The notes under the pieces are model-generated. The model was not told the DNA's origin. It made no database searches and saw nothing but the letters and a program-made list of their open reading frames with translations. A DNA stretch of 64,000 bases from Treponema sp. (GTDB lineage Bacteria; Spirochaetota; Spirochaetia; Treponematales; Breznakiellaceae). The position numbers and the translations under genes were made by a program. Within the stretch, counting starts at the first letter, position 1. Every line of letters begins with the position of its first letter. Positions 2,080-19,334 of the stretch are shown piece by piece. Location of the stretch: positions 1 to 64,000 of the forward strand of contig WQXI01000001.1 in NCBI GenBank assembly GCA_009784935.1, given 5' to 3'.

Positions 2080-3540
2080 ATGTCAAATATATTATTTTTT
2101 CCATTTAGAACTTATTCTCCTCATTTTGAAACAGACTTAGAATTAATAAAACTGGAATCAGAAAATAAAGATAATAATATATATGTTTTATTTTGTAATG
2201 GTGGATTTAAATCATGTGATAATAATTTTGAGAATAAAAAAAGAATTTGTAAAGCATGTGTTAATAAAAGAAAACGTGCCTTTAAAATAATAAAATCTAG
2301 TAATATAAAAATAATAGATTTAAATAATTACAAAAAAAACAATTATTCTCTTCCTTGTAATGAACATAATATCGATTCTATTAAAAGGATTTATATAGAT
2401 TCATATTCTATAGGATATTCAATATTATCTTCGCTAGAAAATATATTAGATGAATCGTCATTTAATGATTGTATACATATAATTCATAATTTATATTTTG
2501 AAGGATACAATTTATACTATATTGTAAAAACAATTATTAAAAATTATAGTATAGATAAAGGTTATGTTTATAATGCTAGATTTTGTTATACAAGAGCTTT
2601 CTTTGAAGCGTTTCTTTATGAATCAAAACCAATTTATAATCATGATCGAGGTGGAAAATATTATAAATATATTTTAATAAAAAATGAAATGCTGCATGAT
2701 ATTGATAATTATCCAAATCTAATTAATGAATTTTGGGATATAGAAAATAATGAATTATTAAAAAAACAAATTGCTGACAACTTTTTTAAAGATAGATTTG
2801 CAGGAAAACCTACAAATGATGTATCTTATACAAACAAACAAAACCTAAATAAACTGCCTGAAAATTATAGTGTATATAATAAAATTGTAGTAATATATGA
2901 TTCTAGTTCATACGAATATGATTACATTAGCGATGAATATACTTATAAGTTCTATAATTCTCAATCTGATGGTATTAATAAAATCGTAGATACATTATCT
3001 GCATATCCAGAAATAGGTATATTTTTAAGAGAGCATCCAAATCAAAATAATAGAAATAATGAACAACGAGCTAATTTAAGAAATATTAAAGCAAACAATT
3101 TTCATTTGATATCTGCAGAAAGTGATATTAGTTCGTATACTTTATTAACAAAAGCCAATGTTGTTATAACTTTTAATTCTACTATTGGAATTGAGGCAAC
3201 ATATTGGAGGATTCCTTCAATATTATGTTCTAATTCAATATACGAGAAATTAAATATTGCGTATATGCCTTCTTCTCATGATGAATTAATTAAACTTATT
3301 TTATCAGACTTAAAACCTATCCCAATCGAAGATACTTTAAAATTAGGTTACTATTTTAGTAATTCTGGTATTAATTATAAATATTATACGCCCAAGGATT
3401 TGCATGGCGGATTATTCATGGGACATGATTTAGAAGGTTTGAAAAACAAAATTATAAAATTATTTAGAAAGTACTTTCCTAGTATATTTAAGTACTTAAT
3501 AACCATAAAAAAATATCTTAGTAATTTTAAAAAGAAATAG
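2080..3540 (+). CDS. Putative surface polysaccharide biosynthesis glycosyltransferase-like protein
   Basis: A 486-residue protein with no signal peptide or membrane segment. The C-terminal half (about 270-430) resembles the GT-B type capsule-synthesis fold: a strand-loop 'LREHPNQ' followed by 'ADVVITFNSTIG'-like residues ('NVVITFNSTIGIEA') and a Pro-Ser-rich pocket, a pattern found in KpsS/CDP-glycerol transferase-like proteins. The N-terminal part has a conserved-looking Cys cluster ('CNGG', 'RICKAC') of unknown role. Follows pseI after 3 bases. It may transfer or modify the nonulosonate, but the substrate cannot be read from sequence. Confidence 0.55.
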   Translation: MSNILFFPFRTYSPHFETDLELIKLESENKDNNIYVLFCNGGFKSCDNNFENKKRICKACVNKRKRAFKIIKSSNIKIIDLNNYKKNNYSLPCNEHNIDSIKRIYIDSYSIGYSILSSLENILDESSFNDCIHIIHNLYFEGYNLYYIVKTIIKNYSIDKGYVYNARFCYTRAFFEAFLYESKPIYNHDRGGKYYKYILIKNEMLHDIDNYPNLINEFWDIENNELLKKQIADNFFKDRFAGKPTNDVSYTNKQNLNKLPENYSVYNKIVVIYDSSSYEYDYISDEYTYKFYNSQSDGINKIVDTLSAYPEIGIFLREHPNQNNRNNEQRANLRNIKANNFHLISAESDISSYTLLTKANVVITFNSTIGIEATYWRIPSILCSNSIYEKLNIAYMPSSHDELIKLILSDLKPIPIEDTLKLGYYFSNSGINYKYYTPKDLHGGLFMGHDLEGLKNKIIKLFRKYFPSIFKYLITIKKYLSNFKKK

Positions 3541-3543
3541 TAT

Positions 3544-3669
3544 ATGCAATTATACCACGGAACTAATCAGATAATAGAAACTCCAAATTTAGGAAAAAGC
3601 AGAAAATATTTGGATTTTGGCAGCGGGTTTTATATATTGAGGCATACGAATTATGATAACATATATTAA
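3544..3669 (+). pseudogene. Truncated DUF3990 (ADP-ribosyltransferase-like) remnant
   Basis: An ORF of only 41 codons starting 3 bases after the preceding stop. It reads 'MQLYHGTNQ' and then 'YLDFGSGFY', matching the first 30 residues of the intact DUF3990 protein at 4360 ('MILFHGSNV', 'DFGRGFY'). It then hits a stop, so about three quarters of the family length is missing. It is followed directly by DUF3791 ORFs, the usual partners. Best read as the decayed first copy of a duplicated DUF3990/DUF3791 module, with an internal deletion fusing its start to the next gene. Confidence 0.65.
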
Positions 3670-3892
3670 TATAAGTTTAATAAGTATGGTTGTCAGTTTA
3701 ATAGCAGAAAGAAACAGGCTAGATGAACAACAAGCAATTAATATTTTTTATAAAACAAAACTTGCAGATAAATTATTGGATAAAAATACAAGTCTTTATT
3801 TATTATCACCTTATTTAATTTATGAACTATGGAACGCAGAATATCAAACTGGAGATTTTAGCAATACAGATTATTATGAGTGTTTAGTATGA
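3653..3892 (+). CDS. DUF3791-like small protein (copy 1)
   Basis: A 79-residue acidic small protein. The segment 'VVSLIAERNRLDEQQAINIFYKTKL' followed by 'LYLLSPYLIYEL' has the DUF3791 pattern and aligns with the ORF at 4866 ('LSLEESMELFF', 'LYTESSSYIYEY'). DUF3791 proteins are usually encoded beside DUF3990 and are plausible antitoxin or immunity partners, though this is not established. Its start overlaps the truncated DUF3990 remnant by 17 bases, so the first dozen residues may be remnant-derived. Stop and the next start overlap as ATGA. Confidence 0.5.
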   Translation: MITYINISLISMVVSLIAERNRLDEQQAINIFYKTKLADKLLDKNTSLYLLSPYLIYELWNAEYQTGDFSNTDYYECLV

Positions 3893-4092
3893 GAATGATA
3901 TCTGATAAAGCTGTTTTTTTTATATTTTTGTTAGAAAGGTACGCAGAAATAAAAAAAGTATCTTCAAAAGTAGTATTAGAATTATGGCAAGAAAAAAATA
4001 TTATTGAATATATTAATAATATGTATGAGCAATATAATGCTGAACGTATTGAAAATGCAATAGAAGATATTGATAAAAAATTAAGTAAATAA
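3889..4092 (+). CDS. DUF3791-like small protein (copy 2)
   Basis: A 67-residue protein starting at the ATG that overlaps the previous stop (ATGA at 3889-3892); a GTG nine bases upstream is less likely. It has the DUF3791 pattern: aromatic-hydrophobic start 'FFIFLLERYAE', central 'VLELWQEKNIIEYINNMYEQY', and an 'IENAIEDID' tail. Translational coupling to the preceding DUF3791 ORF suggests co-production. Function unknown. Confidence 0.55.
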   Translation: MRMISDKAVFFIFLLERYAEIKKVSSKVVLELWQEKNIIEYINNMYEQYNAERIENAIEDIDKKLSK

Positions 4093-4141
4093 GTTATATG
4101 GTTTACTAGATTTTATTAATATTAAAAGGATTTATACAATA

Positions 4142-4363
4142 ATGAATAATAATAAAAAATATACTTTATTTATAATAAAATGTATTTCTAATTTTGCAGA
4201 AAAGAATAATATTAATATAAAAGATTCTTTTTTGTATTTAAACAAATATAATTGTATACAATACTTGATAGAAAATTACGATATAGAGCATACTCTATCT
4301 AAAGATGATACTTTAGAAGCAATGTATCGTATTGCGCATAATAATGGAGGACATATTATTTGA
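4142..4363 (+). CDS. DUF3791-like small protein upstream of DUF3990
   Basis: A 73-residue protein with the DUF3791 signature 'YLNKYNCIQYLIENYDIEHTLS' and a Gly-Gly near the end. It is translationally coupled to the DUF3990 gene: its stop TGA (4361-4363) overlaps that gene's TTG start, and the GGAGG encoded by its own 3' end (4346-4350) serves as the next ribosome binding site. This tight coupling is typical of antitoxin-toxin or partner pairs, but which role it plays is inference. Confidence 0.6.
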   Translation: MNNNKKYTLFIIKCISNFAEKNNINIKDSFLYLNKYNCIQYLIENYDIEHTLSKDDTLEAMYRIAHNNGGHII

Positions 4364-4869
4364 TTTTATTTCATGGCTCAAATGTAAAAATAGAATCAAT
4401 TGATTTAAATATCTGCAAACCATATAAAGATTTTGGGAGAGGATTTTATACAACAGAGATTGAAGAACAAGCCGCTAATATGGCAATACGAACAGTAAAA
4501 CAATTTGGAGGCAGTCCATATATAACAAAATATTTAATTAATGATAATAATTTTGAAGACATAAAAATTAAAAAAAAAGTATTTAATATGCCATCTAATG
4601 AATGGGCATTATTTGTTCTCAACAATCGAAATAAATATTTTACACCAATTACCGATATCAATTGTAATACAGATAATAAGTACGATGTTGTTATAGGTCC
4701 TGTTGCAAATGACGATATACGATTATTATTTGATTTATTTGAAGATGAGTTTTTAACAATTGATGAATTAACCAAAAGGCTTGAATTTAAAAAACTAACA
4801 AATCAAGTATCTTTTCATACAACAAATGCTGTTAGTATATTAAAAAAAATTGATTCATATAGCATATGA
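4360..4869 (+). CDS. DUF3990 protein, ADP-ribosyltransferase-like
   Basis: A 169-residue DUF3990-family protein. The start is TTG at 4360 with GGAGG ten bases upstream. N-terminal 'LFHGSN' (His5) and 'DFGRGFYTT' (Tyr30) resemble the first two elements of the His-Tyr-Glu type ADP-ribosyltransferase core; 'YDVVIGPVANDD' (109-119) and 'NQVSFHT' (148-154) are further conserved-looking patches. I recall the family being grouped with ADP-ribosyl folds, but activity is not shown here. It is embedded between two DUF3791 ORFs with 4-base overlaps on both sides, so the three proteins are probably made together. A toxin or effector that modifies a host or phage target is one possibility. Confidence 0.65.
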   Translation: MILFHGSNVKIESIDLNICKPYKDFGRGFYTTEIEEQAANMAIRTVKQFGGSPYITKYLINDNNFEDIKIKKKVFNMPSNEWALFVLNNRNKYFTPITDINCNTDNKYDVVIGPVANDDIRLLFDLFEDEFLTIDELTKRLEFKKLTNQVSFHTTNAVSILKKIDSYSI

Positions 4870-5072
4870 ATAAAACTCAAAAATATTTAATTGAGTATAA
4901 AATAAGAGATATAATTTGTTTTATATCATTTGATAATAATTTATCTTTAGAGGAATCAATGGAATTATTTTTTAATTCTAATATATTCGAAAAACTACAA
5001 GATATAGAAACTGGATTATATACAGAAAGTTCATCTTATATTTATGAATATTTTAAAGAAGAACTAAAATGA
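4866..5072 (+). CDS. DUF3791-like small protein downstream of DUF3990
   Basis: A 68-residue acidic protein whose ATG overlaps the DUF3990 stop (ATGA, 4866-4869). The segments 'FISFDNNLSLEESMELFF' and 'TGLYTESSSYIYEYF' match the copy at 3653, giving the DUF3791 pattern. It separates the DUF3990 gene from the HipA-like kinase. Likely partner of the DUF3990 protein; function not established. Confidence 0.55.
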   Translation: MNKTQKYLIEYKIRDIICFISFDNNLSLEESMELFFNSNIFEKLQDIETGLYTESSSYIYEYFKEELK

Positions 5073-5098
5073 AATGAATGAATATTATTTAAAATAAC

Positions 5099-6259
5099 AT
5101 GGACAAAGAATATATCCTAAAACATAAAAACATTCCTGTATTACTTTTTAAATTAAATGAAGATTTTGAATTATTAGAGATAACTACTATATTAGACGAA
5201 AAAAGATTACCATTTGGTTTAAAGTATGCAGGAAAAAAAGAAGCACAATTTAAACAGTTATCCGACTGGATAGAAAATAGAGGATTGCCAAGAAGCAGAT
5301 CTGATTTAGCAAATATTGAATATGATTTTAATGTGAAAAATTCAATCCAGTTAACGTTTGGTTCTTATGCATTAAATTTGGCTGATCATTATTGGGTTCA
5401 TAAATCAGATATTAACTTAAAATGGGAAAATGTAAATTTTTTTAGCAACAATTTTAAAGAAGTAGTTAGTTTTGATATATTAGGTGTGTTTGAGAAAAAC
5501 AGAGAAATACTTGTTGCGCCTGATTTAACTGTAGATGGCAGTTTACGTAAAAAATGGATAATAAATAATAATGAAAGACTTTTATTAAAAGGGAGCCGTT
5601 ATGACGAAATGCAAGAGCCTTTTAATGAATTAATTGCATCAAAAATTATGGATTTATTTGAAATAGAACATGTAAAATACGGTCTTGTTAGAAATGAAAG
5701 TAATAATATGCCATTAAGTGTTTGTAAATGCATGGTAGATATTGATACTGAGATTGTTACTGCCCAGGTTGTATTAGATACCGAGCTAAAGGAAAATAGA
5801 AATGAATACGATAGATTTATTAATATTTGTAATAAGAAAGGAATTAAAGATGTAAAAGAAAATATTGATAATATGATTATTATTGATTTTTTAATTGGTA
5901 ATACTGATCGTCATACATCAAATTTTGGAATTATTAGGAACTCCGAAACATTAGAATGGCTTAAGGTAGCTCCTATATTTGATAACGGTAATTCATTTCA
6001 TCAAAATACTAATACAATTAATAACATAGAAGATAATGTTGATACATTATGCAGATGGTTTCCTAGAGGTAATTATGAAAAATTACAATATATTGATAAT
6101 CCAAAATGCTTTTCTAATGAAAAAATAGATTGTATAAGTAATATTGTGTACGATAATTTATGTAATAATGAAAATGTTAAAGAAGATAAAAAAAATAAAT
6201 TAGTTTCTATTGTAAAAAAAAGAATAAATTTGCTAAAAGAAATTATAGAGAAAAAATAA
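5099..6259 (+). CDS. HipA-like kinase-fold protein
   Basis: A 386-residue protein with a HipA-type catalytic domain in its C-terminal two thirds: ATP-site lysine Lys164 in 'RLLLKGS', an acidic partner in 'PFNELIAS' (174-181), catalytic loop 'IGNTDRHTSN' with Asp270, and the metal-binding 'IFDNGNS' with Asp295. HipA proteins are serine/threonine kinase toxins that phosphorylate targets such as GltX. The first ~110 residues do not resemble the usual HipA N-subdomain, and no HipB-like DNA-binding gene is adjacent. Instead it follows DUF3990/DUF3791 genes 26 bases away, suggesting a different regulatory arrangement. No clear Shine-Dalgarno precedes the ATG. Confidence 0.7.
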   Translation: MDKEYILKHKNIPVLLFKLNEDFELLEITTILDEKRLPFGLKYAGKKEAQFKQLSDWIENRGLPRSRSDLANIEYDFNVKNSIQLTFGSYALNLADHYWVHKSDINLKWENVNFFSNNFKEVVSFDILGVFEKNREILVAPDLTVDGSLRKKWIINNNERLLLKGSRYDEMQEPFNELIASKIMDLFEIEHVKYGLVRNESNNMPLSVCKCMVDIDTEIVTAQVVLDTELKENRNEYDRFINICNKKGIKDVKENIDNMIIIDFLIGNTDRHTSNFGIIRNSETLEWLKVAPIFDNGNSFHQNTNTINNIEDNVDTLCRWFPRGNYEKLQYIDNPKCFSNEKIDCISNIVYDNLCNNENVKEDKKNKLVSIVKKRINLLKEIIEKK

Positions 6260-6284
6260 TATTAGGGATTAAATAAAATCTATC

Positions 6285-6611
6285 ATGGATAATTTGTCAA
6301 ATAATTTTAAAAAAAATGAATTTTTATTGACTCAATTTACTAATGGTTTATTTTGGAATTTTAACAAAGATAAAATAGATTTTTTTAAACATAAGGATTT
6401 AATAATAGAACGTGTAATTGAAGCTGGTTTAGAAAATGATGAAATACTAATGTGGAAATTATATAAATATAAGGATATAAAAAAAGTTGCAATAAATATG
6501 GAAAGTCTTATTTACGAAAAATTAGAATATATAGCATTTGTTTTAAAAATAAATGAAAAAAAGTTCAAAAGCTATGGTAAATTAGATTGGTTTAGAAAAA
6601 ATAAATATTAA
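6285..6611 (+). CDS. Small DUF6922-like protein
   Basis: A 108-residue protein with the pattern 'LFWNFNKDKIDFFKHKDLIIERVIEAG' (about 23-49), which resembles DUF6922, a domain usually found upstream of AbiEii-type nucleotidyltransferase toxins. No nucleotidyltransferase follows; the next gene is a glycosyltransferase 50 bases on. Lies 25 bases after the HipA-like gene and has the same extreme AT content. It may be an orphan antitoxin-like protein or part of the same module. Family assignment is from memory of the pattern. Confidence 0.45.
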   Translation: MDNLSNNFKKNEFLLTQFTNGLFWNFNKDKIDFFKHKDLIIERVIEAGLENDEILMWKLYKYKDIKKVAINMESLIYEKLEYIAFVLKINEKKFKSYGKLDWFRKNKY

Positions 6612-17895: not shown

Positions 17896-19334
17896 CCAAA
17901 CAAGAATTATTAAGTCAATTATCTGATATTGAATGGGATGATTTCGAAGTAAAAGAAGCAAAATCTGACCTGCCAAAGAACATATGGGAAACTGTTTCTG
18001 CTTTTTCTAACGGAGCTGGAGGCTGGATTGTTCTGGGTGCTTCAAAAAAGGGAAAAAAATATGAAATTACAGGAGTTGAAAACCCAGAAAAAATAGAACA
18101 GGATTTTACAACTGTTCTAAGAAGTCACAAGAAATTTAATGTATTAATTAATCCAGTATGTAAAAAATACAAGATAAATAATAAATTTATTTTAGTATTT
18201 TTTATCCAATCTTCTGAACAAAAACCAGTATATTACAATTCATTACAAAATACTTTTATTCGTACAGGAAGCGGAGATCATCGTGCTACAGATTCAGAAA
18301 TAAATTCTCTTTTGAGGGATCAATCGTTTGGTATTCGTTCAGAGTTAATTATTGATAATTTAGGAATTAATGATATAAACATAAGTTCATTAGATACATA
18401 TAGAAACAGAGTAAGAAGTCAAAATCCACAGTTAATTTACAATAACTTATCTAATGAAGATTTTTGTGAAAAGTTTGGAATTACAAAAAATGGTACATTA
18501 ACATACGGTGGTTTATTAACTCTTGGGAAATCAGATATAATACGCAAGACTTTTAATGATTTTTGGGTAGATTATCTCGAAATCCCGGGTATTTCCTATT
18601 CCGATGCTGAAACCAGATATACTTTTCGTATTCAGGAACAGGAAAATTTATGGGAATACTACAATGTTCTTATACAAAGACTTAGAAATTACGCAGACAA
18701 CCCTTTTAGAATGAGTGGTGATGGTTTTGCTTACGAAGAAGATACCCAATTATATGCCTTACGTGAAGGTCTTGTTAATATGTTAATGCACGCAGATTAC
18801 TTTAGTGTAATGCACTCAACAATAAGGGTTTTTTCAAACAGAATTGTCTTCCAAAATCCTGGCAGATTTTATATAAATATCTCAGAATTACCAAAGATTG
18901 CTATTTCAAAACCTAGAAATCCTGTTATTGCACGATTATTTCGGTTGGCAAAACTAGCCGAAAATGCAGGGTTTGGTTTTGATAAAATGCTTGCATGGAA
19001 ACATAAAGTTGAATTTAATACTTATATTGACTTTTCTGAAGTAACATTTTTTTTAAATGAAAATGTCCCAGAAAATGTCCCAGAAAATGTCCCAGAAAAT
19101 GTCCCAGAAAATGTCCCAGAAAATGTCCCAGAAAATGTCCCAGAAAATAGGTGTTTATCGATAATCGAGTTAATTAAAAAGGATGCAAAGATATCCATGC
19201 TAGATTTATCAAAAAAATTACATGTTAATCATAAGACAATAAAAAGAGATGTTCAATCACTTAAAGAAAAAGGTATTATAGAACGCATTGGCCCTGATAA
19301 AGGCGGTTATTGGAAGGTTAATGACAATAACTAA
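17892..19334 (+). CDS. AlbA_2 (Schlafen-like) / HATPase regulator with ENVP linker and HTH
   Basis: A 480-residue protein with three parts. Residues about 15-130 form an AlbA_2 divergent AAA/Schlafen-like domain ('EVKEAKSDLP', 'AFSNGAGGWIVLGASK', 'FIRTGSGDHRAT'). Residues about 280-385 form a GHKL-type ATPase-like region ('LREGLVNMLMHADY', 'NPGRFY'). A linker of seven ENVP repeats joins this to a C-terminal winged helix (about 415-475, 'MLDLSKKLHVNHKTIKRDVQSL'). Such proteins are annotated as putative transcriptional regulators and often sit in accessory regions; the function is unproven. Translation is coupled to the glycosyltransferase before it and overlaps the FemAB-like gene after it. 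Confidence 0.75.
   Translation: MTKQELLSQLSDIEWDDFEVKEAKSDLPKNIWETVSAFSNGAGGWIVLGASKKGKKYEITGVENPEKIEQDFTTVLRSHKKFNVLINPVCKKYKINNKFILVFFIQSSEQKPVYYNSLQNTFIRTGSGDHRATDSEINSLLRDQSFGIRSELIIDNLGINDINISSLDTYRNRVRSQNPQLIYNNLSNEDFCEKFGITKNGTLTYGGLLTLGKSDIIRKTFNDFWVDYLEIPGISYSDAETRYTFRIQEQENLWEYYNVLIQRLRNYADNPFRMSGDGFAYEEDTQLYALREGLVNMLMHADYFSVMHSTIRVFSNRIVFQNPGRFYINISELPKIAISKPRNPVIARLFRLAKLAENAGFGFDKMLAWKHKVEFNTYIDFSEVTFFLNENVPENVPENVPENVPENVPENVPENVPENRCLSIIELIKKDAKISMLDLSKKLHVNHKTIKRDVQSLKEKGIIERIGPDKGGYWKVNDNN
19059..19148 (+). repeat. 12-bp tandem repeat encoding (ENVP)x7
   Basis: Seven perfect copies of GAAAATGTCCCA (19059-19142) are followed by a half unit GAAAAT. Each 12-bp unit encodes Glu-Asn-Val-Pro, so changes in copy number keep the frame and only alter the linker between the ATPase-like region and the winged helix. 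The perfect DNA identity suggests recent slippage or gene conversion. Confidence 0.95.

What the first reader, a model, noticed from the sequence alone, without database searches (positions are those of the whole stretch)
3544..6611. Composite module: DUF3990 ADP-ribosyltransferase-like protein, DUF3791 partners and HipA-like kinase inside a glycan locus
A DUF3990 gene is flanked by two translationally coupled DUF3791 genes (overlaps TTGA and ATGA), followed after 26 bases by a kinase-fold protein with HipA catalytic residues but no HipB, then a DUF6922-like protein normally found with AbiEii toxins. Two effector chemistries (ADP-ribosylation and phosphorylation) next to several small partners suggests a multi-component toxin-antitoxin or anti-phage system. 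I know of no characterised system with this layout.
Basis: partly seen in the sequence, partly recalled or inferred. Interest (0 to 1): 0.78.

Follow-up and report, generated by a model that had tools for sequence, protein, structure and literature searches.

The report
ADP-ribosyltransferase toxin-antitoxin cassettes beside unrelated genes
A Treponema-like bacterium carries, inside a surface-sugar gene cluster, two copies (one intact, one decayed) of what looks like a widespread but untested three-gene toxin-antitoxin module built around an ADP-ribosylating enzyme; the neighbouring HipA-like kinase and DUF6922 genes look like independent passengers rather than parts of one new machine.

Summary
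The genes are as described, but the five-gene composite is not supported. Window 3544-5072 holds two tandem DUF3990/DUF3791 cassettes: a decayed ART-beta-alpha and an intact alpha-ART-beta. DUF3990 models as an ADP-ribosyltransferase (best solved match ParT) with an H-Y-Q triad. Alpha (DUF3791) and beta (a divergent relative) are co-inherited with it and occur fused in either order; a sister ART type has a partner with an Xre-like HTH. Alpha often outlives the ART. I infer a toxin (ART) with a two-part antitoxin. The trio matches PADLOC candidate PDC-M13, and a clade with the same signature was linked to toxin-antitoxin systems before; I found no functional test. The HipA/CtkA-like kinase is real but normally solitary: of 57 kinase places in 588 genomes only the window's lies within 5 kb of an ART, and 0 of 70 other kinase loci show ART, alpha or beta in the fetched flanks. 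DUF6922 lacks the AbiEii gene found beside three relatives. The multi-component toxin-antitoxin idea thus holds for three genes and fails for five. Modestly new: PADLOC's M13, M10 and perhaps M42 look like split, fused and HTH-fused forms of one module.

The parts
3544..3669 (+). Cassette 1: remnant of a DUF3990 ART (41 aa; first H and GFY kept, the part with W, R and Q lost)
   Evidence: Pfam DUF3990 E 3.1e-11 over profile 1-33 of 152; PADLOC PDC-M13B PDLC04438 E 3.4e-11
3653..3892 (+). Cassette 1: beta protein (divergent DUF3791 relative), 79 aa
   Evidence: PADLOC PDC-M13B PDLC04440 E 1.1e-15; Pfam DUF3791 16 bits, under its 25-bit cut-off
3880..4092 (+). Cassette 1: alpha protein (DUF3791), 70 aa
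   Evidence: Pfam DUF3791 E 2.5e-10; PADLOC PDC-M13C PDLC04446 E 1.2e-21
4142..4363 (+). Cassette 2: alpha protein (DUF3791), 73 aa; proposed half of the antitoxin
   Evidence: Pfam DUF3791 E 2.3e-16; PADLOC PDC-M13A PDLC04435 E 6.8e-22; 4-nt overlap with the ART gene
4360..4869 (+). Cassette 2: full DUF3990 ADP-ribosyltransferase-like protein, 169 aa, triad H5-Y30-Q149; proposed toxin
   Evidence: Pfam E 3.2e-44; model pLDDT 95.9, pTM 0.89; Foldseek best ParT E 2.1e-3, prob 0.99; triad conservation
4866..5072 (+). Cassette 2: beta protein, 68 aa; proposed second half of the antitoxin
   Evidence: PADLOC PDC-M13C PDLC04444 E 5.3e-24; no Pfam hit; profile-profile match of its family to alpha
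5099..6259 (+). Independent neighbour: HipA/CtkA-like kinase, 386 aa, catalytic residues intact, no HipB gene beside it
   Evidence: Model pLDDT 90.3, pTM 0.91; Foldseek CtkA 3akj E 1.7e-10, then HipA; K164, D270, H272, N275 in 38 of 38 and D295 in 37 of 38 rows; not linked to ART elsewhere
6285..6611 (+). Independent neighbour: DUF6922 protein without an adjacent AbiEii gene
   Evidence: Pfam DUF6922 E 1.2e-12; in L205, L208 and L209 the DUF6922 gene overlaps a following AbiEii gene

Best explanation
Window 3544-5072 is two tandem copies of a mobile three-gene toxin-antitoxin module. DUF3990 is a small intracellular ART-fold enzyme (H-Y-Q triad) that, when free, would ADP-ribosylate an unknown essential target or consume NAD. 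Alpha (DUF3791) and beta (divergent DUF3791 relative), made from overlapping genes, together bind and silence it. Cassette 2 is intact; cassette 1 has lost most of its ART but keeps both partners. The HipA/CtkA-like kinase and the DUF6922 gene are separate accessory genes in the same low-GC sugar locus. Shown by computation: gene content, predicted folds, active-site conservation, recurrent trio, fusions, co-inheritance, lopsided loss, lack of kinase linkage in the samples searched. Inferred: toxicity, neutralisation by alpha+beta, target, trigger.
For: ART fold and triad (over 130 full ARTs H5 128, Y30 130, Q149 129). Of 127 full ART ORFs (three plasmid ones left out) 53 are alpha|ART|beta, 26 ART|beta,alpha, 11 ART|long alpha-class partner (144-163 aa), 2 ART|beta, 35 without alpha/beta. 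Of the 11 long partners 7 show alpha then beta domains side by side (each at E 0.013 or better), and Bacteroides plasmid partners are beta then alpha. Of the 35, 32 have a downstream partner found with a model seeded on a 218-aa protein (31 of that model's 84 members were already classed alpha or beta, so it had widened); 25 of 25 aligned ~210-aa members matched HTH_3, as type II antitoxins do. Alpha-ART overlap is exactly 4 nt in 40 of 53. ART-alpha, ART-beta and alpha-beta distances correlate over 78 trios, r 0.76, 0.75, 0.71, 0 of 2000 permutations reaching each. Lopsided loss: of 61 alpha genes over cut-off in the 247 genomes, 40 have a full ART within 1.5 kb, 8 only a piece, 13 none; one of the own genome's five cassettes is beta-alpha with no ART (L157). 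62 of 72,556 plasmid records hold an ART match, 28 typed conjugative. Kinase independence.
Against: I found no report of activity or toxicity. The usual catalytic Glu is Gln here; in ScARP an E164Q change is reported inactive (PMC11833690, passage), though CmdT-type ARTs are described as HY-[E,D,Q] (PMC11618068, passage). A sequence profile found no ART among solved structures; only the fold comparison did, with no E under 0.001 and TM about 0.46. Lopsided loss may be inflated by contig ends (the C34 cassette is one; the 13 lone alphas were not checked except L157) and by alpha's shortness. Of 53 full ARTs in that sample 14 had no alpha within 1.5 kb. Kinase and ART co-occur in genomes above chance (9 of 10 and 18 of 33 kinase genomes have ART), though unlinked and confounded by phylogeny; ART beyond short contigs' ends would be missed. 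A Bacteroides plasmid has a canonical HipA with an HTH gene 1.7 kb from its ART, but that HipA shows no significant similarity to the window kinase (E 0.47).
Confidence: 0.72

Rival explanations
1. One reading: a single composite defence or toxin-antitoxin system whose two effectors (ADP-ribosylation and phosphorylation) and DUF6922 work together.
For: All genes co-directional with gaps of 26 and 25 bases; kinase and ART co-occur in genomes above chance; a canonical HipA gene lies 1.7 kb from an ART on one Bacteroides plasmid.
Against: 1 of 57 kinase places within 5 kb of an ART, the window itself; 0 of 70 other kinase loci with ART, alpha or beta in fetched flanks; the closest kinase relatives (66% and 61%, L005 and L006) stand without them; DUF6922 precedes AbiEii in three relatives; the plasmid HipA is not similar to the window kinase.
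Confidence: 0.04
2. The module is kept mainly as anti-phage abortive infection: infection releases the ART from alpha/beta.
For: PADLOC lists it as candidate PDC-M13; one cassette lies with DarTG inside a type I R-M locus (L202) and 3 of 100 tallied neighbours are R-M specificity proteins; CmdTAC is a precedent.
Against: No phage test found; 100 neighbours matched 171 Pfam families, none in more than 4 proteins, so no clear defence-island signal; the trio itself occurs on viral contigs (16 of 33 ART loci there have alpha or beta).
Confidence: 0.35
3. The module is selfish or stabilises its replicon (addiction), here a variable sugar locus and elsewhere plasmids.
For: 62 plasmid records with an ART match, 28 typed conjugative and 4 mobilizable; three of the own genome's five cassettes lie in two sugar loci (window, L158); the ART tree interleaves the two genome samples; lone alpha/beta survivors are expected of anti-addiction.
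Against: No stability test; in the neighbour tally Polysacc_synt_2 matched 2 of 100 (only 25 of 171 families were shown), so sugar loci are not a general home.
Confidence: 0.33
4. The ART is a non-toxic or inactive regulator because Gln replaces the catalytic Glu.
For: Gln at the triad's third place in 129 of 130 full ARTs; ScARP E164Q is reported inactive (passage).
Against: H, D, GFY, W, R and Q are near-invariant over very diverse sequences, unlike the drift of a dead enzyme; HY-Q is listed as an ART triad; DUF3990 forms the C-terminal domain of a Serratia Rhs protein, a toxin position (passage).
Confidence: 0.1
5. Alpha and beta are immunity proteins against DUF3990-type toxins delivered by rival cells; lone copies are kept for that.
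For: DUF3990 in an Rhs C-terminus (passage); 13 alpha genes without an ART within 1.5 kb.
Against: The intact cassettes encode a free-standing ART of about 160-170 aa without room for delivery domains, and the trio co-inherits.
Confidence: 0.1

Closest known systems
PADLOC candidates PDC-M13, PDC-M10, PDC-M42
   Same: Cassette 2 hits M13A (E 6.8e-22), M13B (1.5e-50) and M13C (5.3e-24) models; the ART also hits M10A and M42A models; a fused partner hits M10B (E 1.1e-65) and an HTH partner M42B (E 1.3e-9).
   Different: PADLOC lists them as separate candidates; here they look like split, fused and (weakly supported) HTH-fused states of one antitoxin. The one held paper naming PDC-M13 gives, in the passages I saw, prevalence only (PMC13356809).
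Tox-ART-HYD2 clade (PMC3482391; PMC5512222)
   Same: Its printed signature H, D, GFY, W, R equals invariant columns here; [quoted passage not shown]
   Different: PMC5512222 describes Asp in strand 5 for its ARTs; this family has Gln. The 2012 table lists no immunity partner, though its text speaks of distinct immunity proteins. The two works cited for the TA class were not held. I did not compare sequences, so membership is not claimed.
ParST (ParT, PDB 6d0i/6d0h)
   Same: Best fold match of the ART; an ADP-ribosylating toxin with a cognate antitoxin, by the entry title.
   Different: 9% identity; here two DUF3791-type partners without HTH.
CmdTAC (PMC11618068)
   Same: Three-component ART toxin-antitoxin system with an HY-[E,D,Q] triad (passages).
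   Different: Its third part is a SecB-like chaperone; here both small parts are DUF3791-related and no SecB family was matched. CmdT itself was not compared.
HipA/HipT kinases and CtkA (3akj)
   Same: Kinase fold and catalytic residues.
   Different: No HipB or HipS gene beside it; longer than CtkA (386 vs 325 aa). Gerdes et al. 2021 (PMC8262856, abstract and passages) describe other monocistronic Hip kinases; I did not place this kinase in their tree.
Bxa with Bsi and BAH (PMC11699363)
   Same: An antibacterial ART neutralised by two proteins encoded next to it (abstract and passages).
   Different: MuF-fused prophage toxin with a catalytic Glu; one immunity protein is an ADP-ribosyl hydrolase.

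Membership tests
Pfam DUF3990 | Score above the curated cut-off | tested here: met
   150.7 vs 32.2 bits
ADP-ribosyltransferase fold | Predicted structure resembles solved ARTs | tested here: met
   pLDDT 95.9; top matches ParT and PARPs, probability up to 0.99 but no E under 0.001
ADP-ribosyltransferase fold | NAD-dependent activity | not testable with these tools
   needs biochemistry
Tox-ART-HYD2 clade | Signature H, D, GFY, W, R | tested here: met
   H5, D24, G28-F29-Y30, W82, R90; invariant in 79 of 79 rows of A2
Tox-ART-HYD2 clade | Aspartate in strand 5 (as PMC5512222 describes) | tested here: not met
   Gln149 in strand 148-152; so not filed as a member
PADLOC PDC-M13 | M13A, M13B and M13C models together | tested here: met
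   all three hit by cassette 2; PADLOC's own system rule was not available
PADLOC PDC-M13 | Antiviral activity | not testable with these tools
   no report found
Type II toxin-antitoxin | Small adjacent, overlapping partner genes | tested here: met
   overlaps in the window; trio in 79 of 127 full ARTs, 90 if the 11 long partners count as fusions
Type II toxin-antitoxin | Antitoxin protein neutralises toxin protein | not testable with these tools
   inferred from architecture and lopsided loss
HipBA | HipA-like kinase fold and catalytic residues | tested here: met
HipBA | HipA_C over Pfam cut-off | tested here: not met
   28.5 vs 30.5 bits
HipBA | Adjacent HipB (HTH) gene | tested here: not met
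   flanking genes are beta and DUF6922
AbiE | DUF6922-type gene | tested here: met
AbiE | Adjacent AbiEii nucleotidyltransferase | tested here: not met
   next gene is glycosyltransferase-like (RXYLT1_C)
CmdTAC | SecB-like chaperone gene | tested here: not met
   no such Pfam hit among the ten scanned window genes
ParST | Xre-like ParS antitoxin partner | tested here: not met
   alpha and beta show no HTH match in Pfam; a sister ART type does have HTH partners

The most novel reading that the evidence does not exclude
A tripartite toxin-antitoxin class in which two distantly related DUF3791 proteins form a required heterodimeric antitoxin for an H-Y-Q ADP-ribosyltransferase, one perhaps folding or sensing like the third part of CmdTAC; it exists split in two gene orders, fused in both orders, and with an added DNA-binding domain, so that three separate defence candidates are one family with an unknown target.
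Probability: 0.4. Interest if true: 0.55.

Novelty: new member of a known kind. Interest (0 to 1): 0.33.

Why it matters
The module is common (ART in 25 of 247 genomes of the window's phylum, and 71 of 341 of the class of G251; PDC-M13 counted 3324 times in rumen genomes by PMC13356809, passage) and rides conjugative Bacteroides plasmids such as pBF9343, yet I found no functional test. Treating M13, M10 and M42 as one ART with a two-part antitoxin gives a directly testable prediction, and setting the kinase and DUF6922 aside keeps a false composite out of the defence catalogues.

Tried and rejected
Composite system: rejected on linkage. ADP-ribose erasers as regular partners: macrodomain (L030, L033), NADAR (L025) and ADP-ribosylglycohydrolase (L048) genes lie beside ARTs (Pfam), but a search with these four proteins found only themselves among 146 ART loci (single-sequence search), and the two macrodomains belong to DarTG pairs; left as a curiosity. 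Glycan loci as the module's home: not general. Absence of the insertion in relatives could not be tested: the upstream sugar gene 2080-3540 matched only the own genome among 39 (E 1e-5 or better), and GC does not set the genes apart (23.2% against 25.3% and 25.2% in the flanks). Solved relatives of alpha by sequence: none convincing. Papers with an H-Y-Q wording: none. DarT as control for genome co-occurrence: 13 of 247 genomes, 0 of the 10 kinase genomes; kinase-ART co-occurrence is thus not a general property of such toxins, but DarT sits in other lineages, so phylogeny is not excluded. Rows dropped: A2 used 78 of 89 listed ARTs plus the window (dropped: one near-copy, the window's own duplicate, nine divergent or fused-type rows); restores them, the one non-Gln being L041, a broken gene. 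A3 used 37 of 43 listed kinases plus the window. A1 used 100 of 222 listed neighbours, chosen by me, mostly from alpha/beta or fused types. A4 and A5 used 52 of 72 and 50 of 77 printed rows plus two window rows each. Three of 27 viral kinase loci gave no hit to my kinase profile and were not counted; three of the 46 genome kinase loci hit the HTH-partner profile, which I take as ordinary HTH genes, unchecked. Of the seven further DUF6922 places, L210-L212 were not read; L207 has a shortened AbiEii-like ORF. One search was mis-numbered by one residue and is superseded.

Full report
WHAT IS THERE. Pfam confirms DUF3990 (4360-4869), DUF3791 (4142-4363), a sub-threshold HipA_C (5099-6259) and DUF6922 (6285-6611); the small gene 4866-5072 has no Pfam hit.

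TWO SMALL-PROTEIN FAMILIES. Around ARTs from the window's phylum, from the class of G251 and from the genomes of L005-L009 the small genes fall into alpha (DUF3791 proper) and beta, distantly related to each other (hhalign probability 91%, E 1e-6). Of 149 ART ORFs (three plasmid ones left out), 127 are full: 53 alpha|ART|beta, 26 ART|beta,alpha, 11 ART|long alpha-class partner, 2 ART|beta, 35 without alpha or beta; 22 are partial, 16 of them still beside alpha or beta. Cassette 2 of the window is the first order; cassette 1 is a decayed second order. Their partners share only 28% (beta) and 15% (alpha) identity, so this is not a recent tandem duplication.

FUSIONS. The 149-aa 'DUF3791' of Bacteroides plasmids is beta (residues about 14-81) fused to alpha (84-148); the 152-aa partner in L100 is alpha (10-69) fused to beta (92-151). 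Of the 11 long partners, 7 show both domains side by side at E 0.013 or better, three more align with them, and one (L060) does not fit. Profile comparison of nine such proteins puts beta at the C-terminus (probability 95%) and alpha at the N-terminus (63%). Of the 35 ARTs without alpha or beta, 32 have a downstream partner found by an iterated model; all 25 aligned ~210-aa members carry HTH_3 at the C-terminus, and 5 match an antitoxin Xre-like HTH family. The part before the HTH resembles beta and alpha only weakly (probabilities 23% and 19%), so that link is a suggestion. PADLOC calls these arrangements M13, M10 and M42.

ENZYME. The AlphaFold model of the window ART is confident (pLDDT 95.9, pTM 0.89). 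Foldseek ranks ParT first (E 2.1e-3, probability 0.99), then PARPs, with a chain of the RhsP2-RhsI2 complex at rank 21; no match passes E 0.001, and a sequence profile finds no ART in the PDB. H5, Y30 and Q149 are present in 128, 130 and 129 of 130 full ARTs; the one non-Gln is in the broken gene L041. Q149 lies at the start of strand 148-152; PMC12340436 places the ART glutamate at the beginning of strand 5 (passage). HY-[E,D,Q] is given as the triad of diphtheria-type ARTs in PMC11618068 (passage). Against activity: ScARP E164Q is catalytically inactive (PMC11833690, passage).

EVIDENCE FOR TOXIN AND ANTITOXIN. (a) Partner genes overlap the ART (alpha-ART overlap exactly 4 nt in 40 of 53). 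(b) Distances of ART, alpha and beta correlate over 78 trios (r 0.76, 0.75, 0.71; 0 of 2000 permutations each), and the ART tree interleaves the two genome samples, while gene order needs 5 changes against 22 when shuffled. (c) Loss is lopsided: 61 alpha genes over cut-off in 247 genomes, 40 with a full ART within 1.5 kb, 8 with only a piece (one, C34 of the own genome, is cut by the contig end), 13 with none (contig ends unchecked except L157); conversely 14 of 53 full ARTs had no alpha that near, a number that fits the HTH-partner type but was not resolved one by one. In the own genome, of five cassettes two are complete (window cassette 2, C18), one is cut by a contig end (C34), one has only an ART remnant (window cassette 1) and one has no ART (C40, L157). 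(d) 62 of 72,556 plasmid records hold an ART match, 28 typed conjugative; three were opened: pBF9343 has the fused partner and ART near a zeta-toxin-family gene, a B. zhangwenhongii plasmid has a HipA gene with an HTH gene 1.7 kb away, and a 7.7-kb Phocaeicola plasmid carries the pair. (e) 16 of 33 viral-contig ART loci have alpha or beta; 6 of 50,697 phage records match the ART. Toxicity and neutralisation themselves are inferred.

KINASE AND DUF6922. The kinase model (pLDDT 90.3) matches CtkA (E 1.7e-10) and HipA (TM up to 0.62 by query length). K164, D270, H272 and N275 are invariant in 38 of 38 rows, D295 in 37, so it is probably active. It occurs in 10 of 247 genomes of the phylum, 33 of 341 of the other class, 15 plasmid and 7 phage records. 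In the 16 loci whose neighbours I read, they are unrelated to each other. Of 57 kinase places, 5 share a contig with an ART: the window's is 254 bases away, the next 5.7 kb, the others 18 kb or more; many contigs are short. Among 46 genome and 24 viral kinase loci with flanks of up to 1.5, 3 or 8 kb none holds ART, alpha or beta. At genome level kinase and ART co-occur (9 of 10, p 2e-9; 18 of 33, p 6e-6), which phylogeny and lifestyle may explain; DarT, as a control, is in none of the 10. The plasmid HipA near an ART is a canonical HipA (HipA_C E 8e-41) without significant similarity to the window kinase. DUF6922 is rare (7 of 198 genomes, 4 over cut-off); in L205, L208 and L209 its gene overlaps a following AbiEii gene, here none.

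CONTEXT. The locus is a low-GC (23-25%) sugar gene cluster against 37% from 10157 on. A further cassette of the same genome also lies in a sugar locus (L158), but over 100 neighbours of cassettes no family exceeds 4 proteins; helicases, R-M specificity subunits, HTH proteins, integrases and polysaccharide genes all appear among the 25 families shown of 171.

WHAT IS KNOWN. Zhang et al. 2012 define Tox-ART-HYD2 by H, D, GFY, W, R in many phyla including spirochaetes, with no immunity partner in the table row (PMC3482391, passages). [quoted passage not shown] the two works it cites were not held. DUF3990 is in the ART clan (PMC7955679, passage) and in a Serratia Rhs C-terminus (PMC4524185, passage). 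PDC-M13 was found in one held paper, as a prevalence count (PMC13356809, passages). Searches for DUF3990 or DUF3791 gave five papers; I saw passages of three, none of which tests the function. Hence: known kind, new member. The unification of M13, M10 and M42 I did not find in print, in a library lacking most subscription papers.

VERDICT.

Noticed in passing
L201:1917-4658 and L202:1-7066: DarT-DarG pairs (DarT and Macro by Pfam) sit directly upstream of ART-beta-alpha cassettes in two genomes; in L202 the array lies between HsdS/HsdM and an HsdR-like gene of a type I R-M locus.
   Followed up: partly
L025:2484-2855 and L048:2311-3120: A NADAR gene (E 1.1e-32) and an ADP-ribosylglycohydrolase gene (E 2.3e-34) lie just downstream of ART cassettes.
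   Followed up: partly
window:17892-19334: A Schlafen-AlbA_2/HATPase_c_4 gene in the sugar locus holds a perfect 12-bp repeat of 7.5 copies at 19059-19148 (NVPE repeats in the protein); a gene of the same domains follows the solitary kinase in L005.
   Followed up: partly
L158:7566-9594: A further ART-beta-alpha cassette of the same genome also lies in a sugar locus, preceded by a DUF6036 nucleotidyltransferase gene and a small unknown gene.
   Followed up: partly
L157:3174-3623: Own-genome beta-alpha pair with no ART beside it.
   Followed up: yes
L007:6839-9182: Two tandem HipA/CtkA-like kinases in a Candidatus Endomicrobiellum MAG.
   Followed up: no
L178:2317-4846: Another genome with two neighbouring, divergent alpha-ART-beta cassettes, so side-by-side cassettes are not unique to the window.
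   Followed up: no
L051:4555-6615: On B. fragilis pBF9343 the fused beta-alpha and ART genes are followed by a small gene and a zeta-toxin-family gene.
   Followed up: no
L207:1139-1704: A DUF6922 gene followed by a shortened AbiEii-like ORF, where the near-copy L208 has a longer one.
   Followed up: no
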